A stretch of 64,000 nt of DNA from Alphaproteobacteria bacterium (GTDB taxonomy: Bacteria; Pseudomonadota; Alphaproteobacteria; Sphingomonadales; Sphingomonadaceae). The position numbers and the translations under genes were made by a program. Below the pieces are notes generated by a model. The model searched no databases, was not told the DNA's origin, and saw only the letters and a list, made by a program, of their open reading frames with translations. The DNA lies in contig JAUHWC010000001.1 of NCBI GenBank assembly GCA_030424845.1, positions 744,001-808,000 of the forward strand, in the 5' to 3' direction. Position 1 is the first letter of the stretch. Each line of letters starts with the position of its first letter. Below, one piece after another: positions 4,988 through 51,745 of the stretch.

Positions 4988-6058
4988 TCAATCCAGCGGA
5001 TCCCAGCCGGCTGTGCCCGCATCCCCGGCATCGCCTTCGGTCGGCATGTGCCCGGGGGTTTCGGTTGAAGTCTGTGCCGGAAGGTAACGCAGGACCGCGT
5101 CCATCAGTTCCTCGATTCCCGCACCGGTGATGCCGGAAACCGCAAAGACATCGTCCACCCCTTCCGCTTTCAGCTCTGCGGCGAAACCTTCCACCAGTTC
5201 GGCATCGGCCAGGTCCACCTTGTTCAAGGCCACCAGCCTCGGCTTGTCCTCCAGCCCTGCGCCATAGGCTTCCAGCTCGCCTTCGACCACCCGCAAGGCC
5301 TCCACCGGGTCTGCCCCCGAAATATCGATCAGGTGGATCAACACCCGGCAGCGTTCGATATGGCCGAGGAAGCGATCGCCGATGCCGGCCCCTTCCGCAG
5401 CACCTTCGATCAGGCCGGGAATATCCGCCAGCACGAATTCGCGGCCCTTGTGGTGCACCACGCCCAGCTTGGGGATCAGCGTCGTGAAGGCATAATCCCC
5501 CACCTTTGCCCCTGCATTGGACACGGCATTGATGAAGGTGGACTTGCCCGCATTGGGCAGGCCGACAAGACCCACGTCCGCGAGCAGCTTCAGCCGCAGC
5601 CAGACCGACATTTCCTGCGCCGGTTCACCGGGCTGGTGCTGGCGCGGGGCGCGGTTGGTGCTGGTCTTGTAGCTGGCGTTGCCACGCCCGCCCATGCCGC
5701 CTTCCAGCAGCACGAAGCGCTGGCCTTCCTCGGTAAAGTCGAACAGCACCTCTTCCTTGTCCTCGGACAGGACCTGGGTGCCCACGGGAACCTTGATCAC
5801 GAGGTCTTCCGCACTGGCCCCGGTGCGGTTCTTGCCCATGCCGTGACCGCCACGCTTAGCCTTGAAATGCTGCGAATAGCGGAAGTCGATCAGCGTGTTG
5901 AGGCCGGGCACGGCCTCGAAGACCACGTTCCCGCCCTTGCCGCCGTTCCCGCCATCGGGACCGCCGAACTCGATATACTTCTCGCGCCGGAAGCTGACAG
6001 CGCCGGGCCCGCCCGCGCCGGACTTCACGTGGATCTTGGCCTGATCGAGAAAATGCAT
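4988..6058 (-). CDS. obgE: Obg family GTPase ObgE/CgtA
   Basis: Essential ribosome-assembly and stress GTPase acting on the 50S subunit. The 356-residue protein has a Gly-rich Obg fold (residues 1-160, with FGGPDGGNGGKGG), followed by a G domain with P-loop GLPNAGKS (166-173), DIPG (212-215) and NKVD (279-282). The C-terminal 30 residues are acidic and Thr/Pro/Gly rich. It is the first gene of an apparent obgE-proB-epimerase unit. rplU-rpmA, often upstream in other bacteria, are not here; a CHAT-domain gene is upstream instead. Confidence 0.96.
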   Translation of the reverse strand: MHFLDQAKIHVKSGAGGPGAVSFRREKYIEFGGPDGGNGGKGGNVVFEAVPGLNTLIDFRYSQHFKAKRGGHGMGKNRTGASAEDLVIKVPVGTQVLSEDKEEVLFDFTEEGQRFVLLEGGMGGRGNASYKTSTNRAPRQHQPGEPAQEMSVWLRLKLLADVGLVGLPNAGKSTFINAVSNAGAKVGDYAFTTLIPKLGVVHHKGREFVLADIPGLIEGAAEGAGIGDRFLGHIERCRVLIHLIDISGADPVEALRVVEGELEAYGAGLEDKPRLVALNKVDLADAELVEGFAAELKAEGVDDVFAVSGITGAGIEELMDAVLRYLPAQTSTETPGHMPTEGDAGDAGTAGWDPLD

Positions 6059-6115
6059 GCGCGCGCCCTTATTCGCTTTTCGCCCGAAGTGCCAGCAGAG
6101 AGCAGCGTCGCAACC

Positions 6116-8470
6116 TCACAAGTCGCCGATCAGGGTGAAGGGTGCCCAGGCATTGGGATGGGCGAGCGTGTCCGACGCGCTGTCCTGCGAAGCGTCGTTG
6201 CGGATCTCCTGCATGGCACGTTGCAGCGCCTGCGCCCGCGAAAGAGCCCGGTCTTGCCGCATCATTTCCACCGTGCGCACCGTGATGCGCGCAGCCACGT
6301 CATCGCGCACCGGCCAGTGGCTCGCCAGCAGGTTGCGCGCACCGGCGTAGAAGAAACTGCGGGCAAGGCCTGAAAGCCCCGGAGCGCCCGCGCTGCCGTC
6401 GCCCGCCGCGGTGTTGCAGGCCGACAGGATAACCCATTCGGCGTTCAACCGGAGCTGCGCGACCTCGGAGGCGCTGAGGTAGCCGTCATCCCGGGCACTG
6501 GCCATTTCGGGAGGGGTGAGGACAAGGCCGGGTTCGCTGATCCCGTCAAGCTCGCCGGCAACCAGGGCATGGGTGGCAAGCGCGATGATCCGCGCATCGG
6601 AAAGGTCCTGCGACTTGAGCGCCGTTTCGGTCGCCTGCGCCCCCAGGAACAGGCTCACCTCGTCCTCGTCGAAGAAAGAACCAAGCGCAGCAATTTCCCG
6701 TGACGTTCCGGGGAGCCGCGCCATCGAACGCAAGGCATCGGCATCCACCAGGGCCACCCCCGCAAGGCTGCGGGTAATGGCATAGGCATCGGAAGACGAG
6801 GCCCCGCCACCGCGAATGGTGGCTGAGCCGCGCAGGCCGGCCCCGCCACCGCGCGTCACCGCCTGGCCTTCCAGAGCCGGATCACCGAAACCCACCAGCT
6901 CGCGCCCGCTCGCCGCCATTCCGCGGCTTTGCGCCAAGGCCCGCTGCAATTGCAGCGACTGGATCGAAGGTATCTGGATCAGGGCATGATCATCACCAAA
7001 CCAGCGCGTGGCGCGCAAGGCAGCCGGATCGCCGTCCGCGCCTTGCGGTTCTTTCGCCACCAGCATCGCGAAGGGCAGGCTGGACAGCGAACCACCCGCG
7101 GCCACGAAGAGATGGCGCTTGCCCTCCAGCAGGTGGGCAAGAGGCGCAATGATCTGGCTGTAGAGCCGGTGCGCAGTGCCGCGGTCGAAGGGATAGGCCC
7201 CCTCCCCTTCGCGCGACCAGGCGATGGACTGGTCGACATCCACCTCCACAGTCGCCCCCACATCCCATAGAAGGCGCTGCACGGCGGCATCGACTTCGGC
7301 CTCCGTCATGTCGGCCCTGTTCCAGAAAATCCCCTCATTCGTAACCAGCATGGCGTGGGTGCCATTTCCTGTGGGTACGGCCAACAGCATCGCTTCGTCC
7401 GGGCCCATCAGGCGCTGTGCATCGTGTTCCGACAAGGCGGAGGCGCGAACGAATGCGAAATACTCGGGCGCTTCCTGTTGCAAGCGGCTGTCCAGCGCTG
7501 CGATCTCGTCTGCAAGCGCAGCCTGCCGGGTCCGCAGCTGGTCGCGCATGGCAGGATCGGCACTTGCGCCCAGCATGTCAGTCAGACGGCCATCGATCAT
7601 GCCCCACTCGTCCGAAAGCTGCTGGCGCCGCGCAACCAGCGCACCAAGCTCCGCATCGGCAGCGGATACTGTGCGGCGGGCAGCCGCTTCGGCAATCGCC
7701 CTGTCGGTGCTGCCGCTCATGGCATCCTGCAAGGCAGCAAAGGCCTCGGGCCGAAATTCCTCCAGGCTTTCCAGATCGCCGAATGCCTGGCGCTGCTGGC
7801 CGCGCTGCATGCGCAACTGCTGGCGCGCATCGTATTCGGCGTGTTGCCACAGCGCATCGGCCAGGTTCGCATAGAGTTCGCGCTGGTTGCGGATGTCGCG
7901 CAGGCGTTGTGCCTCTCCCGCAGGGCCGGTGAGCATGGTGTCCCGCCTCCGGGCGAAGATCCGCACCGCTTCACGCGCAGGCTCCAGCGCCTGCCGGCCA
8001 AGATAGGCAGGCTGCGCCAGCCGGATCGAGGCGAGAGTGCTGGCCGCCCGCAAGGTGTCCGGATGGTCTTCCCCCATGACCGCACGCGATTGCAAAAGCC
8101 CGAGAAAGCCAAGCTTGTCCGCGGAACGGAACAGCTCCATCTCATCGCTCCACCGGTCCACCTCGGACTGGATCGCGGCGAGCGTGACCATGCTGCGGAT
8201 CGCCTGCGGATGGTTCAGGCCCATGATCTCGGCATTGCGCTCGAAGGCACTTTCGCCCTCGCCCAGCGCATCGTAAAGGTCCAGCATCCCGTCATGGTCC
8301 GGGTCTGCCGAAAGCGCAGCCGTTGCCGCTGCAAGCCGCTCCATTGCCAAGAGGGTGGCGGGATCATCCTCACCCAATTGCTGCATCCGCAGCCAGTAGA
8401 CGCGGTTCATCAAGGGACGCGCTTGCTCGGCATCACCAAGATCCATCAGCACATCGGCCAAGGCCTGCAC
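6116..8470 (-). CDS. C-terminal part of the interrupted gene: kinesin-light-chain-type TPRs and CHAT domain
   Basis: This part holds TPR units of the kinesin-light-chain kind, seen as the spaced motifs GEDDPATLLA, GLNHPQAIRS and GEDHPDTLRA. A helical linker follows, then a C-terminal CHAT (caspase HetF associated with TPRs) domain. The cysteine-protease dyad is intact: His 933 in LATHA and Cys 984 in SACNTAAGDG, counting from ATG 9367 with the TAG as one residue. The terminal HPNAWAPFTLIGDL block is typical of CHAT. In the family this domain cleaves proteins; here the substrate is unknown. GTG 8470 is only a formal start, since the frame continues upstream to the TAG. Confidence 0.7.
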   Translation of the reverse strand: MQALADVLMDLGDAEQARPLMNRVYWLRMQQLGEDDPATLLAMERLAAATAALSADPDHDGMLDLYDALGEGESAFERNAEIMGLNHPQAIRSMVTLAAIQSEVDRWSDEMELFRSADKLGFLGLLQSRAVMGEDHPDTLRAASTLASIRLAQPAYLGRQALEPAREAVRIFARRRDTMLTGPAGEAQRLRDIRNQRELYANLADALWQHAEYDARQQLRMQRGQQRQAFGDLESLEEFRPEAFAALQDAMSGSTDRAIAEAAARRTVSAADAELGALVARRQQLSDEWGMIDGRLTDMLGASADPAMRDQLRTRQAALADEIAALDSRLQQEAPEYFAFVRASALSEHDAQRLMGPDEAMLLAVPTGNGTHAMLVTNEGIFWNRADMTEAEVDAAVQRLLWDVGATVEVDVDQSIAWSREGEGAYPFDRGTAHRLYSQIIAPLAHLLEGKRHLFVAAGGSLSSLPFAMLVAKEPQGADGDPAALRATRWFGDDHALIQIPSIQSLQLQRALAQSRGMAASGRELVGFGDPALEGQAVTRGGGAGLRGSATIRGGGASSSDAYAITRSLAGVALVDADALRSMARLPGTSREIAALGSFFDEDEVSLFLGAQATETALKSQDLSDARIIALATHALVAGELDGISEPGLVLTPPEMASARDDGYLSASEVAQLRLNAEWVILSACNTAAGDGSAGAPGLSGLARSFFYAGARNLLASHWPVRDDVAARITVRTVEMMRQDRALSRAQALQRAMQEIRNDASQDSASDTLAHPNAWAPFTLIGDL

Positions 8471-8539
8471 GACGTCGGTCGTGAAAGGATGTTCGGACGT
8501 GAGTTCAGCGTCGGCAAGCTCCAGCGCGCGGGCGAGCAG

Positions 8540-9367
8540 CTAGCGCGCCTCGCGATCCCGCCCTGAGGCGACAAGGTTCGCCGCATGATCATGCAGCGCT
8601 ACGGCGTGCTCCACCCGGGCAGTGGCGGCGCGCCCGTCGATCAGCTCCAGCAATTGCCGCGAAGCTTCCAGCGCCGCCTCGCGCTTGCCTGCCGTGCGCG
8701 CTTCGCCGGACCTGGCAAAGAGGGCCTGTGCCGAACCATCCCATACGCGCGGGTCAAGCTCCGGCATGGCCATGTCGCTGACGGAAACGCCCGCCTCGTT
8801 CGCCTTGCGCAGGAAACGGTCGATACCGCAGATCAGCCGTGTCTTGCCCAGCGGATCGTAGACGACATCGATCTCGTAGGTCTCAGGGTTGTACTCACCT
8901 TCCCCGGTGGTGTTCAGCCGGGCATCGATATGAATCGACATGATTTCGGGAAGGACACCGAATTCATTGGGTTCATAGGGGTCCTCGAAGACCACGCCCC
9001 GCTCGACCATGGCGCGCATGGCGGGTTCGAAATCCTCGGCAAAGAACACCATGCGTTCATCGAAACTGATGGCGATATGGGTGACGGTGAGCGGCCCCAG
9101 GCCAGCATCCACCGCGCGCGAAACGCGCAGCTGCGTCTCCTCCATGTTGTCATAGGTACGCAGGTCCTGGCCGGACTCTTCCTCCGCCCTGTCGAATTCC
9201 TGCTGCAATTCGGCAAACATGGCATCGAGGGTGGGACCGAAATCGCAACGACTGGGATCGAACGCGAAGTCGCCAATCGCACGCTGCTGCGCCAGCGCGG
9301 GAGATTGCGGCAATGCCAGAGCCGCCAGCACGGCAAGCCATGAGCCCCTTGCCCGATTGGATGCCAT
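8540..9367 (-). CDS. N-terminal part of the interrupted gene: signal peptide, unknown domain, first TPR helices
   Basis: The part read before TAG 8540 is 275 residues. Residues 1-27 are a Sec signal peptide (Arg-rich start, LAVLAALAL core, PALAQ cleavage region). Residues 30-180 form a domain I do not recognise. Helical TPR-like sequence then begins and is cut off in mid-repeat. ATG 9367 is preceded by AGGGGGCAGG and by a good promoter at 9403-9431. If only this part is made, a periplasmic protein without protease domain results. Confidence 0.65.
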   Translation of the reverse strand: MASNRARGSWLAVLAALALPQSPALAQQRAIGDFAFDPSRCDFGPTLDAMFAELQQEFDRAEEESGQDLRTYDNMEETQLRVSRAVDAGLGPLTVTHIAISFDERMVFFAEDFEPAMRAMVERGVVFEDPYEPNEFGVLPEIMSIHIDARLNTTGEGEYNPETYEIDVVYDPLGKTRLICGIDRFLRKANEAGVSVSDMAMPELDPRVWDGSAQALFARSGEARTAGKREAALEASRQLLELIDGRAATARVEHAVALHDHAANLVASGRDREAR

Positions 9368-9402
9368 TGCTGCCTGCCCCCTGTCGGCCATCGAAGGGCC
9401 GC

Positions 9403-9431
9403 AATGCAGCAATCGCTTTCTAGGCTGTCAA
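9403..9431 (-). promoter_or_regulatory. Sigma70-type promoter candidate for the TPR-CHAT gene
   Basis: On the minus strand TTGACA (9426-9431) is a perfect -35, followed after 17 bases by TGCATT (9403-9408) as a weaker -10. It sits about 36 bases upstream of the ATG and after the tRNA, so the gene probably has its own promoter. It also receives possible read-through from the tRNA, since only a weak 5-bp hairpin separates them. Confidence 0.45.
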
Positions 9432-9473
9432 GCAAGGGGCAAGGAAAACCGGGCTATTGCAAATGTCCCGGGA

Positions 9474-9549
<76 letters not shown>

Positions 9550-9564
9550 TATCTGCCAACCTGC

Positions 9565-10449
9565 CTATTGTTCGGGACCCTCCGCGCTGGAAATGGGCTG
9601 CACGACGGGAGTGGACACGGCCGTTTCGCTTGCCGGGATCACCGGGATGGCGGCGCCCGTTTCCGGATCGATCACTTCGCCCACAGCGCCCACCGGCTCG
9701 CCGGCGATCAGGCTGGAGGAGACCCCCGCAGGCATGCCCTGCGCACCCCAGACAGCCACATAGCCGGGCTGCGAGGCGCCATACTGCGCACCGTATCGAC
9801 GGTCCCATTCCGCAGAAAGCTGCTGGTAGCTTTCGTATTCGTCGAAGAAGCGCAGGAACGCGCTCTCCAGCAACGGCAGGTTGAGTGCGGCATATTCGCG
9901 CACATTCTCGCCCTGGTAATTGGGGAAATCGATCGCGATCTGGCGAGCCGCGGCACAGAAATTGGCGCGTGCGCCAGGCAGGGCGAAGTAGTTGTAGACC
10001 TGCGTGGAGTGCTCTTCTCGCGCGCGAATGGCAGCGCGTGCAGAACCTGTCAGGTCACGGAAGCGTTGCTCCATCGTGCGGTTGGCCGAGGCCAGTCCGT
10101 TCGGGAAGCTGCGCAGGAACTGACCGTAGGACGTGTTGATGATCTCGTCATCGGGTCCAAGACAGTTGAGCGCGGCGACATTCCAGCCCGAGCGGAAGTG
10201 CCAGACGGCCTCGTGCTCGTCTATCCCGTGGTTGACCGTCAGGCGTTCGCCAGTAGCGTTCCTTGCCGGAATCTGCATCACATAGGGCGAACCGGCAGGC
10301 GGGATCGGGCGATAGGGTATGGGCTCTGCCTGGACAACCGGCGGCGGCGGCGGGGGCGGCGGAGGCGGCGGAGGCGCGGGAGTGGTGCACCCTGCAACCA
10401 GGGCCAGAGCCACTGCTCCAGCAGCCGTTTTCCAACGCGTCTTCAGCAT
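9565..10449 (-). CDS. Polyproline-linker lipoprotein of unknown function
   Basis: This is a 294-residue predicted lipoprotein. A lipobox (LVAGC) lies about 20 residues from the ATG at 10449, followed by CTTPAP and a run of about 12 prolines that probably spans the periplasm. The remaining 240 residues form a soluble helical domain with no family I recognise, ending in a Pro/Val/Thr-rich tail. ATG 10449 was chosen because it places the lipobox correctly and has GGGAAAGAGG upstream; the ATGs further up (10503, 10491) would bury the signal. The proline run is encoded by a GGC/GGA-type triplet repeat (about 10340-10380) and could vary in length without frameshift. It is followed by tRNA-Ala, 15 bases downstream. 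Confidence 0.7.
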   Translation of the reverse strand: MLKTRWKTAAGAVALALVAGCTTPAPPPPPPPPPPPPVVQAEPIPYRPIPPAGSPYVMQIPARNATGERLTVNHGIDEHEAVWHFRSGWNVAALNCLGPDDEIINTSYGQFLRSFPNGLASANRTMEQRFRDLTGSARAAIRAREEHSTQVYNYFALPGARANFCAAARQIAIDFPNYQGENVREYAALNLPLLESAFLRFFDEYESYQQLSAEWDRRYGAQYGASQPGYVAVWGAQGMPAGVSSSLIAGEPVGAVGEVIDPETGAAIPVIPASETAVSTPVVQPISSAEGPEQ

Positions 10450-39119: not shown

Positions 39120-39953
39120 ATGGCGCAGGATAGAGTGCAGGCCGCAAAGGCCATTTTCATCACCGGCGGCGCATCGGGCATCGGGCGCGCCATTGCCATC
39201 CGCTATGCGAGCGAAGGCTGGCTGGTGGGGCTTGGCGATGTGAACACCGCCGGCATGGCAGAGACGCAGGCGCTGCTGCCTGAAGGGCGCAGCCACGCTT
39301 TTCGCCTTGACGTGACAGATGCCGCGCAATGGCAGGACGTGCTGGCTGCCTTCACCGGCCATACCGGCGGCAGGCTGGACGTTCTGGCCAACAATGCGGG
39401 CCTTCCATCAGGCGGGCCGCTGGCCGAACTGACGCTGGAGGAGCTCGACGCGCTGATCGATGTGAACCTGCGCGGCGTGTTCTATGGCGCGAAGGCGGCC
39501 TACCCCTTCCTCAAGGCGGCTGCGCCGGGCAGCTGCCTGCTCAACACGGCCAGCGCGGCGGCCTTTTACGGCATGGCCAACCAGAGCATATACGGCGCGA
39601 CCAAGGCCGGCGTCCGCTCGATGACGGAATCGCTGGAAGCCGAATGGGCCGATGAGGGCATCAAGGTGCGATCGCTGATGCCCAGCTTCATCGACACGCC
39701 GCTGCTGCAGAACCCGCCGAACCGCAGCCGCAACAGCCCCATCCGCGATGCGGTGGTGGCAGCAGGCCTGGAATTCACGCCGGTCGAAGTGGTGGCCGAT
39801 GAAGCATGGCGCGCAGTGCACGAAAGCCCGATCCACCGCGTGATCGGCAAATCGGCCCGCAGGATCAAGCGGGTGGCCAAATGGGCCCCGCAATACCTGC
39901 GCCGCCGGGCAAGGATGCTGGCCGATGCCCACAATGCGGCAGAACCGGATTAG
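39120..39953 (+). CDS. Short-chain dehydrogenase/reductase
   Basis: This is a 277-residue classical SDR with TGGASGIG (15-22), NNAG (92-95), Ser146 and Y159-x-x-x-K163. Asp41 in GLGDV after the second strand suggests NAD(H) preference. The substrate is unknown. The C-terminal extension ([15 protein letters not shown]) is basic and amphipathic and may contact membrane. The ribosome site is GGGAGAG. It ends tail-to-tail with the carbinolamine dehydratase gene; the stops overlap as TTAG. Confidence 0.88.
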
Positions 39954-45208: not shown

Positions 45209-46591
45209 ATGAGCGTAAAATGTGATCTTATCCAGCCGGATCGTGGACAGGATGCTGTCGCGATCCATCTTGTCAACAAGGACGGTTTTGCCGATTTTGC
45301 CAAGAATCTCAGTGGCCCACAGCGCGCGGCGCTGTCAGCACAGAAGTTCAACGGCGGCGGATACCAGGTGGGCATCGTGCCTGACGGAGACGGCTGGTTC
45401 GCCGTTGGCGGAGTGGCCAATCCGCAGGACCTTTCCAGCTGGTGCCTGGCCAAGCTGGCGGAAAGCCTGCCGGGCGGCACCTATCGCCTCGCCAATGGCG
45501 ATCCCGGCGCGGCGAGCTTCGGCTGGCAGAGCGCGCAATATGTGTTCGACCGCTACAAGAAGGACGATGATCCGCAGACCGATCGCATCCTGTTGACCGG
45601 CGAAGTCGGGCGGATCCCCTCGATGCAGGCCGAAGTGCAGGCCTGCGCGCTGGTGGCGGACATGGTCAATACGCCGGCAGAGGACATGGGCCCCGAGGCG
45701 ATCGAGGCGGAGGCGGCCAAGCTGGCAGGCGCGCATGGCGCAAGGCTGGACGTGGTGCGCGGCGATGCGCTGGTGACCGGCTTCCCGATGGTGCACGCAG
45801 TGGGCCGTGCAGCCGCGCGCGAGCATGCCCCGCGGCTGATCGAACTGAACTGGGGTGACGAGAGCCATCCGCGCATTGCAATTGTCGGCAAGGGCGTGGC
45901 CTTCGATTCGGGCGGGCTCGATATCAAGCCTGCGTCCGGCATGCTGCTGATGAAGAAGGACATGGGCGGCGCGGCGCACGCCCTGGCGCTGGCCAAGCTG
46001 GTTATGGAGGCCGGCCTCAAGGTGCGCCTGCAGTGCCTCGTCCCGGCCGTCGAGAATGCCATTTCGGGCAATGCCTTCCGCCCCGGCGATGTGCTCTCCA
46101 GCCGCAAGGGGCTGACCGTGGAAATCGGCAATACCGATGCCGAAGGCCGCCTGATCCTGGGCGATGCGCTGACCTACGCCAGTGAACAGGGGCCGGAATT
46201 CATCATCGACTTCGCCACCTTGACGGGCGCTGCGCGCGTGGCCGTGGGGCCGGACCTGCCCGCCCTGTTCACCCGCCGCGACGAAACGGCGGACGAACTG
46301 CTGGCTGCCGGGCGTGCGCATGACGATGCGCCCTGGCGCCTGCCCCTGCACGCTCCCTATGCCGAGTGGCTGAAGTCGGACATCGCCGATACCAACAACA
46401 CCCACACGAACGCCTTTGCCGGAGCCAGCGTCGCGGCGAGCTTCCTCGACAAGTTCGTGGGCGAAGGCATCGACTGGGCCCATTTCGACACCTTCGCATG
46501 GCGTCCGGTGGCCAAGCCCGGCAGGCCCAAGGGCGGCGCGGCGCTGGGCCTGCGTGCAGCCTTCCACACTCTCAAGCAACGCTACGGTTAG
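45209..46591 (+). CDS. Leucyl aminopeptidase family (M17) protein
   Basis: This is a 460-residue cytosolic zinc peptidase with an N-terminal macro-like domain and a C-terminal catalytic domain containing VGKGVAFDSGGLDIKP, MKKDMGGAA and the family hallmark NTDAEGRL. It removes N-terminal residues from peptides; specificity is not deducible. The start at 45209 follows an AGAGAGGCGC stretch. It is followed 74 bases later by the SH3 gene and argC. Confidence 0.93.
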   Translation: MSVKCDLIQPDRGQDAVAIHLVNKDGFADFAKNLSGPQRAALSAQKFNGGGYQVGIVPDGDGWFAVGGVANPQDLSSWCLAKLAESLPGGTYRLANGDPGAASFGWQSAQYVFDRYKKDDDPQTDRILLTGEVGRIPSMQAEVQACALVADMVNTPAEDMGPEAIEAEAAKLAGAHGARLDVVRGDALVTGFPMVHAVGRAAAREHAPRLIELNWGDESHPRIAIVGKGVAFDSGGLDIKPASGMLLMKKDMGGAAHALALAKLVMEAGLKVRLQCLVPAVENAISGNAFRPGDVLSSRKGLTVEIGNTDAEGRLILGDALTYASEQGPEFIIDFATLTGAARVAVGPDLPALFTRRDETADELLAAGRAHDDAPWRLPLHAPYAEWLKSDIADTNNTHTNAFAGASVAASFLDKFVGEGIDWAHFDTFAWRPVAKPGRPKGGAALGLRAAFHTLKQRYG

Positions 46592-50992: not shown

Positions 50993-51011
50993 TGAATCAC
51001 CTCGTTGCATT

Positions 51012-51061
51012 GTAAAGAACTCTTTACTGTAAAGACCTCTTGTCAGTCAAGAGCTCTTTAC
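51012..51061. promoter_or_regulatory. Tandem GTAAAGA...TCTTTAC palindromes in the XRE-lysozyme divergent gap
   Basis: Site A (51012-51027) is GTAAAGA-AC-TCTTTAC, with perfect 7-bp arms. Site B has arms 51029-51042 and 51048-51061 (14 bp, one mismatch, 5-base loop) with the same GTAAAGA/TCTTTAC ends plus inner CTCTTG/CAAGAG. A minus-strand -35 TTGACT (51045-51050) is inside site B and the -10 region (51021-51027) inside site A. Binding of the short XRE protein would block its own promoter and may affect the divergent lysozyme gene. Confidence 0.7.
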
Positions 51062-51130
51062 AGGCCTTTCCTACAACCTTCCCCGCTGCCTAGCGCCGTC
51101 AGCGAATCCAACGCAGACGGAGGAGAGACC

Positions 51131-51745
51131 ATGCCCCGCAAACCCCTGTTCGACACCGTCCGCACCATGCTCGGGCGCGGCTTCAGCCGAAGCGAGATCG
51201 AGGCGCTCGACAACTCGGCGGACATTCTGCTTCGGGACAGTGTTCCATGTGTTCCATCGACCAAGACATCACAGGGCGCATCGCCATCCCAAATTGGCCC
51301 GGACGGCATTGCGCTGATCAGGCAGTTCGAGGGCTGCGCAAAGCGGCGGGCGGACGGGATGTTCGAGGCCTATCCCGATCCCGGAACCGGCGGCGATCCC
51401 TGGACCATTGGCTGGGGCGCAACGGGTGACGGCATCGGCCCCGGCACGGTGTGGACCAGAGCGGAGTGCGACCAGCGGCTGGAGGCCGACCTTGCCCGCT
51501 ATGCGCGACAGGTTGCCCGCGCCATCGGTGATGCGCCAACCAGCCAGCAGCAGTTCGATGCGCTGGTTTCCTTCCATTACAACACCGGCGCCATCGGCAA
51601 GGCAACGCTTACCCGCAAGCATGTGGCGGGCGATCATGCGGGGGCCGCGCGCGAGTTTGATCGCTGGGTCTATGCCGGTGGACGGGTAATGAAGGGACTG
51701 GTGCGCCGCCGCGCCGCCGAACAGGCGCTTTATCGCCGCGGGTGA
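51131..51745 (+). CDS. GH24 (T4-type) lysozyme
   Basis: This is a 204-residue muramidase of the phage-endolysin family. The catalytic set is visible as Glu67 (RQFEGC), Asp83 (AYPDP) and Thr92 (WTIGWG). There is a 55-residue N-terminal region (RTMLGRGFSRSEIEALD) before the catalytic domain and no signal peptide, so release would need a holin or lysis. GGAGGAGAG precedes ATG 51131. No holin, tail or packaging genes are near, so it is a domesticated or stray phage gene. It shares its upstream region with the XRE operon. Confidence 0.88.
   Translation: MPRKPLFDTVRTMLGRGFSRSEIEALDNSADILLRDSVPCVPSTKTSQGASPSQIGPDGIALIRQFEGCAKRRADGMFEAYPDPGTGGDPWTIGWGATGDGIGPGTVWTRAECDQRLEADLARYARQVARAIGDAPTSQQQFDALVSFHYNTGAIGKATLTRKHVAGDHAGAAREFDRWVYAGGRVMKGLVRRRAAEQALYRRG

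What the first reader, a model, noticed from the sequence alone, without database searches (positions are those of the whole stretch)
8540..8542. One in-frame TAG splits an exported TPR-CHAT protein
The minus-strand frame from 9367 to 6116 is open except for TAG at codon 276. Residues on both sides form one continuous TPR helix (DREAR, stop, LLARALELADAEL), and the catalytic His933/Cys984 of the CHAT domain remain intact downstream. There is no frame change and no deletion. A single CAG/GAG/AAG to TAG change explains it; a recent knockout, a sequencing error or stop readthrough are all possible. The intact C-terminal half suggests the event is recent, or that the stop is sometimes decoded.
Basis: partly seen in the sequence, partly recalled or inferred. 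Interest (0 to 1): 0.72.

Follow-up and report, generated by a model that had tools for sequence, protein, structure and literature searches.

The report
Recently truncated accessory TPR-CHAT gene
A bacterium carries an extra, probably imported gene for an exported protease-like protein that is cut short by a single stop codon, which looks like an ordinary, very young broken gene.

Summary
On the minus strand, 9367-6116 is open except for one TAG at 8540-8542, codon 276. Both halves belong to one gene: the only unbroken full-length relative found (Sphingomonadales bacterium EhC05, 1060 aa) runs through this point in one frame. The gene lies between tRNA-Ala(CGC) and obgE. In 29 of 29 other genus loci read, that gap is too small to hold it, so this lineage probably gained it.

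The part behind the stop looks undamaged. It departs at 2 of 99 strongly conserved columns, its branch is about as long as its sister's (0.431 and 0.412), and it has no second break. Nothing found supports decoding of the stop: none of 41 confirmed tRNAs reads UAG, the RNA behind the stop folds no better than shuffles, neither relative that reaches this point has a stop there, and TAG ends other window ORFs.

Best reading: a young nonsense allele of an acquired accessory gene. A sequencing error cannot be excluded without reads, and low-level readthrough cannot be excluded without protein data. Ordinary; low interest.

The parts
8540..8542 (-). in-frame TAG, codon 276
8543..9367 (-). first half, 275 codons: signal-peptide-like start (by eye), a module without a Pfam name, start of the TPR region
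6116..8539 (-). second half, 807 codons plus the final TGA: TPR region and CHAT domain
8318..8464 (-). best TPR_12 stretch (C-half residues 26-74)
   Evidence: Pfam E 2.9e-9
6122..7177 (-). CHAT domain (C-half residues 455-806)
   Evidence: Pfam E 5.6e-54, profile 3-289 of 289
6569..6571 (-). His codon 933, followed by Ala where most relatives have Gly
6416..6418 (-). Cys codon 984
6116..9470 (.). approximate extent of the lineage-specific stretch, absent from this site in the other genus loci read
9474..9549 (-). tRNA-Ala(CGC), upstream border of the site
4988..6058 (-). obgE-like gene, downstream border of the site (name from recall)

Best explanation
A gene for an exported TPR-CHAT protein was gained by this lineage between tRNA-Ala(CGC) and obgE (inferred from the gene-free site in relatives) and has since taken a point nonsense mutation (inferred). 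Translation ends at codon 276 (inferred), so at most a 275-residue exported fragment without the CHAT domain is made and the protease-like activity is lost. The event is so young that nothing else in the frame has visibly decayed.
For: One frame in EhC05 spans both halves. No such gene fits at the site in 29 of 29 other genus loci. The second half keeps 97 of 99 conserved columns, has an ordinary branch length and no second break; under no selection a second break would be expected after about 8-39 changes, so divergence since the stop is bounded at 0.9-4.7% depending on the model. No UAG tRNA among 41, no fold behind the stop. Single inactivating mutations are the rule in Salmonella pseudogenes, 346 of 378 (PMC2916853, section 7), and transferred genes are over-represented among prokaryote pseudogenes (PMC522871, section 8).
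Against: The same good preservation is what a still-used, read-through gene would show. One relative-rate test of nine (outgroup L048, chi2 4.04) has the window copy faster, eight do not. Only one unbroken full-length relative was found. The assembly cannot be checked against reads.
Confidence: 0.8

Rival explanations
1. The TAG is a sequencing or assembly error and the gene is intact.
For: A single base is involved and the rest of the frame is well preserved. The genome is a draft of 9 contigs.
Against: The assembly is otherwise good (99.86% complete). A point substitution with the frame kept is not the homopolymer indel typical of assembly errors (recalled).
Confidence: 0.1
2. The stop is sometimes read through, so that a little full-length exported TPR-CHAT protein is still made.
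For: Constraint behind the stop looks normal. A survey reports many in-frame stops in bacterial genes with dN/dS below 1 (PMC7918605, abstract and passages).
Against: None of 41 confirmed tRNAs reads UAG (no tRNA labelled Ile is listed, so the set is incomplete); no fold better than shuffles behind the stop; neither relative reaching this point has a stop there; TAG ends ordinary window ORFs.
Confidence: 0.05
3. Two products: the first half is a short exported protein and the CHAT part starts anew behind the stop.
For: Eight ATG, GTG or TTG codons lie between codons 300 and 331. The first-half module occurs without CHAT in L036 and L144. CHAT ORFs of about 590-610 residues exist, such as L046, L064 and L065.
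Against: None of the eight has a clear Shine-Dalgarno sequence (by eye). Those short CHAT ORFs begin with a signal-like segment of their own (by eye), which the window's second half lacks. The cut falls within a TPR repeat. EhC05 has one frame.
Confidence: 0.05

Closest known systems
Bacterial pseudogene with a single premature stop (young nonsense allele)
   Same: One frame, one stop, orthologous sequence on both sides, no further decay; compare PMC2916853, section 7
   Different: No second isolate is available to show that the allele is young or polymorphic
Exported CHAT-domain tetratricopeptide-repeat proteins (PF12770 with PF13424)
   Same: Whole CHAT profile and TPR match, signal-like start; relatives at E below 1e-60 in 45 of 397 genomes of the family, the own included
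   Different: Interrupted at codon 276; carries a first-half module seen in few genomes
Sphingomonadales bacterium EhC05, LXYP01000051.1
   Same: Collinear single 1060-residue frame, 36% and 53% identity in the two halves
   Different: Not interrupted; no tRNA and no obgE match on its 7757-base contig
Csx29 / TPR-CHAT of type III-E CRISPR (Craspase)
   Same: Same two domain names (search listing only)
   Different: The window protein looks exported, and no such chain is among the 16 solved-structure sequences matched at E up to 1; no CRISPR test was run

Membership tests
CHAT domain proteins (PF12770) | match over the curated cut-off across the whole profile | tested here: met
   184 bits against a cut-off of 24, profile 3-289 of 289
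CHAT domain proteins (PF12770) | His and Cys of the presumed dyad | tested here: met
   both present; the residue after His is Ala here and in L028, Gly in 36 of 38 distinct CHAT contexts
CHAT domain proteins (PF12770) | peptidase activity | not testable with these tools
   needs an assay
Pseudogene with a nonsense mutation | an orthologue with an open frame across the stop | tested here: met
   EhC05, 1060 residues; G172 also passes this point without a stop
Pseudogene with a nonsense mutation | relaxed constraint behind the stop | tested here: inconclusive
   2 of 99 columns, branch 0.431 against 0.412, 1 of 9 rate tests significant
Pseudogene with a nonsense mutation | no full-length product | not testable with these tools
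   needs proteome or ribosome data
Programmed stop readthrough or recoding | a tRNA reading UAG | tested here: not met
   0 of 41 confirmed tRNAs; the pattern search gave one non-tRNA and one tRNA-Arg(tct); no tRNA labelled Ile is in the list, so the set is incomplete
Programmed stop readthrough or recoding | stop conserved in relatives | tested here: not met
   no stop at this point in the two relatives that reach it
Programmed stop readthrough or recoding | stimulating RNA structure behind the stop | tested here: not met
   z-scores 1.11 (100 nt) and 1.26 (50 nt); only the tRNA in Rfam for 5800-9800

The most novel reading that the evidence does not exclude
The stop is kept by selection: it yields an abundant exported first-half fragment and a rare full-length CHAT form made by low-level readthrough, a dosage control on a potentially self-harming protease.
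Probability: 0.04. Interest if true: 0.55.

Novelty: new member of a known kind. Interest (0 to 1): 0.13.

Why it matters
As it stands it is an example of an accessory, probably transferred protease-like gene caught very soon after inactivation. If other isolates kept the same TAG with constraint behind it, it would be a test case for tolerated in-frame stops in bacteria.

Tried and rejected
Named relatives by the 784-aa part in genome contigs: 18 pattern matches, none a relative. The EhC05 protein in the same collection found its own record alone. No second strain of the window's species was found, and the genus was never named.

Reassignment of TAG in this genome: rejected, because window ORFs end in TAG with short continuations (20-814, 39120-39953, 45209-46591; 24-30 codons to the next stop) and no CUA tRNA was seen. 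The 51 ORFs were picked mechanically and include antisense shadows such as 51005-51745, so its stop counts (TGA 24, TAG 18, TAA 9) are no clean census.

Insertion by a tRNA-targeting element: the best direct match between the two borders is 13 bases with 1 mismatch, taken as chance, and the stretch has no room for a further gene beyond this frame. No source was identified: in plasmids, 48 records have CHAT relatives, 34-36% identical in the 20 rows seen, none covering 80% of the query; DNA matches cover 11% in the 20 rows seen. DNA around the stop in 41 genomes: the own copy, and in 4 of 40 others only 24-57 base pieces.

Family libraries: NCBIfam gives a TPR match below its cut-off; PADLOC a weak BovA match over 49 residues, not taken as evidence of defence. 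Papers with both 'CHAT domain-containing' and 'Erythrobacter': 0; that genus name was a guess.

Rows left out: the conservation test used the C half and 30 relatives, of 34 with a frame extracted; L034, L035, L036 and L047 were left out, L058 did not count before residue 448 in the test of others, and most genus loci were not used. Of the 53 contexts, the 15 without an LSAC motif were ignored as spurious frames.

Full report
Observation. The minus-strand frame 9367-6116 has 1084 codons with one TAG at codon 276 and a final TGA; the TAG lies at 8540-8542. Behind it Pfam finds TPR_12 and nearly the whole CHAT profile; before it, no family at E up to 1. The His and Cys of the presumed dyad (codons 933 and 984) are present. 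The signal-like start was judged by eye.

One gene, not two. The first half was found in 4 of 397 genomes of the family, the own included: G239 and G172, and weakly G400. With a two-row profile it was found in 4 of 396 genomes of the order: the own, G239 again, and weakly G554 (TPR part only) and G303; in the class, in 1 of 385, the own. The three samples overlap. G239 is Sphingomonadales bacterium EhC05, whose gene is one frame of 1060 codons. G172 also passes this point, but its frame shifts further on at a run of G, in a draft genome of 77% completeness; a real break and an assembly error cannot be told apart there. The two relatives have different residues at the point of the TAG, both sense codons, so what preceded the TAG here is not known.

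A gene gained by this lineage. obgE was sought in 40 genus genomes: 40 of 40 have a match at E below 0.001, though G018 has only weak, paralogue-like ones. Thirty loci were fetched, the own and 29 others; the other 10 genomes were not read at this site. In 29 of 29 others the lipoprotein gene that lies beyond the tRNA in the window sits beside obgE, with at most about 750 nt between the two alignments, too little for this gene. In 21 of the 29 ARAGORN also finds tRNA-Ala(CGC) there, 66-546 nt from obgE against 3415 nt in the window; in the other 8 no tRNA was found. L068, the nearest relative by obgE, matches the window on the tRNA side to a few bases behind the tRNA, and on the obgE side, more loosely, from the gene's own stop codon on. 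So about 3.35 kb holding this gene was gained here, or lost in each of the others; gain is simpler. In the genus, 24 of 40 genomes have some CHAT relative, the best other one 42% identical. No repeat marks the ends and base composition is like that of the surroundings (65.2% against 64.4% GC).

State of the second half. A leave-one-out test over 31 sequences gives 99 columns for the window copy where at least 90% of the others agree; it departs at 2, while 6 sequences depart at none and the worst at 14. One of the two is Ala for Gly beside the His; of 38 distinct CHAT contexts, 36 have Gly and 2 Ala, the window and L028. Terminal branches are 0.431 (window) and 0.412 (EhC05); of nine relative-rate tests eight are below 3.84 and one, with outgroup L048, is 4.04 with the window copy faster. 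The first half gives 37 against 27 changes, chi2 1.56. Had the second half been free of selection since the stop arose, a second break would be expected after about 8 to 39 changes, and the 95% bound on divergence is 0.9 to 4.7% depending on the mutation model. So the stop is young, or the half is still used; the sequence alone cannot separate the two.

Is the stop decoded? 42 tRNA-like places were found. ARAGORN confirms 41 of 42, none reading UAG; the last, L141, seems to have a UUU anticodon (by eye). No tRNA labelled Ile is in the list, so the set is incomplete. A pattern search for CUA tRNAs gave 2 hits against 5 and 8 for the reversed pattern; one is no tRNA and one is tRNA-Arg(tct). The 50 and 100 bases behind the stop fold slightly worse than shuffles, and Rfam finds only the tRNA in 5800-9800. 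None of eight possible starts between codons 300 and 331 has a clear ribosome site, whereas the first start has AGGGGG before it (by eye).

Literature. In Salmonella 346 of 378 pseudogenes have a single inactivating mutation, 131 of them a premature stop (PMC2916853, abstract and section 7). Pseudogenes are put at 2.3 times likelier to come from transferred than from host genes (PMC522871, abstract and section 8). Many in-frame stops in bacterial genes are reported with dN/dS below 1 and readthrough is proposed (PMC7918605, abstract and passages), which keeps that rival alive.

Verdict. Most likely a recent nonsense allele of an accessory, probably acquired, exported TPR-CHAT gene. Shown: the stop, the unbroken relative, the gene-free site in relatives, the preserved second half. 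Inferred: gain by transfer, termination at codon 276, loss of the CHAT activity, youth of the stop. A sequencing error is the main alternative.

Noticed in passing
window 8267-8305, minus strand (C-half residues 79-91): An EF-hand-like loop with Pro at its second position; phmmer matches lanmodulin 6mi5 (E 8.8e-4) and an EF-hand protein 8fns (7.3e-4). The loop pattern occurs in 1 of 36 sequences tested, the window's own; likely chance or a lineage quirk.
   Followed up: partly
L036 (G400) and L144 (G303): The first-half module, without a Pfam name in the window copy, recurs weakly (E 3.7e-4 and 2.5e-4) at the end of a protein that by eye has a zinc-ribbon and an SH3-like part.
   Followed up: partly
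L035 and L058 (G172, contig 242): A second copy of the full-length type is split by a frameshift at a run of G, in a 77% complete draft genome: so 2 of the 3 copies known with both halves are interrupted, in different ways.
   Followed up: partly
L002 / L030 (own genome, contig 9): A second, distant CHAT gene of the same genome has an open frame of 1063 codons with no stop inside.
   Followed up: no
L099 127-3659: In EhC05 the intact gene follows ORFs that by eye are pentapeptide-repeat proteins and an OmpA-like lipoprotein, possible partners of this family.
   Followed up: no
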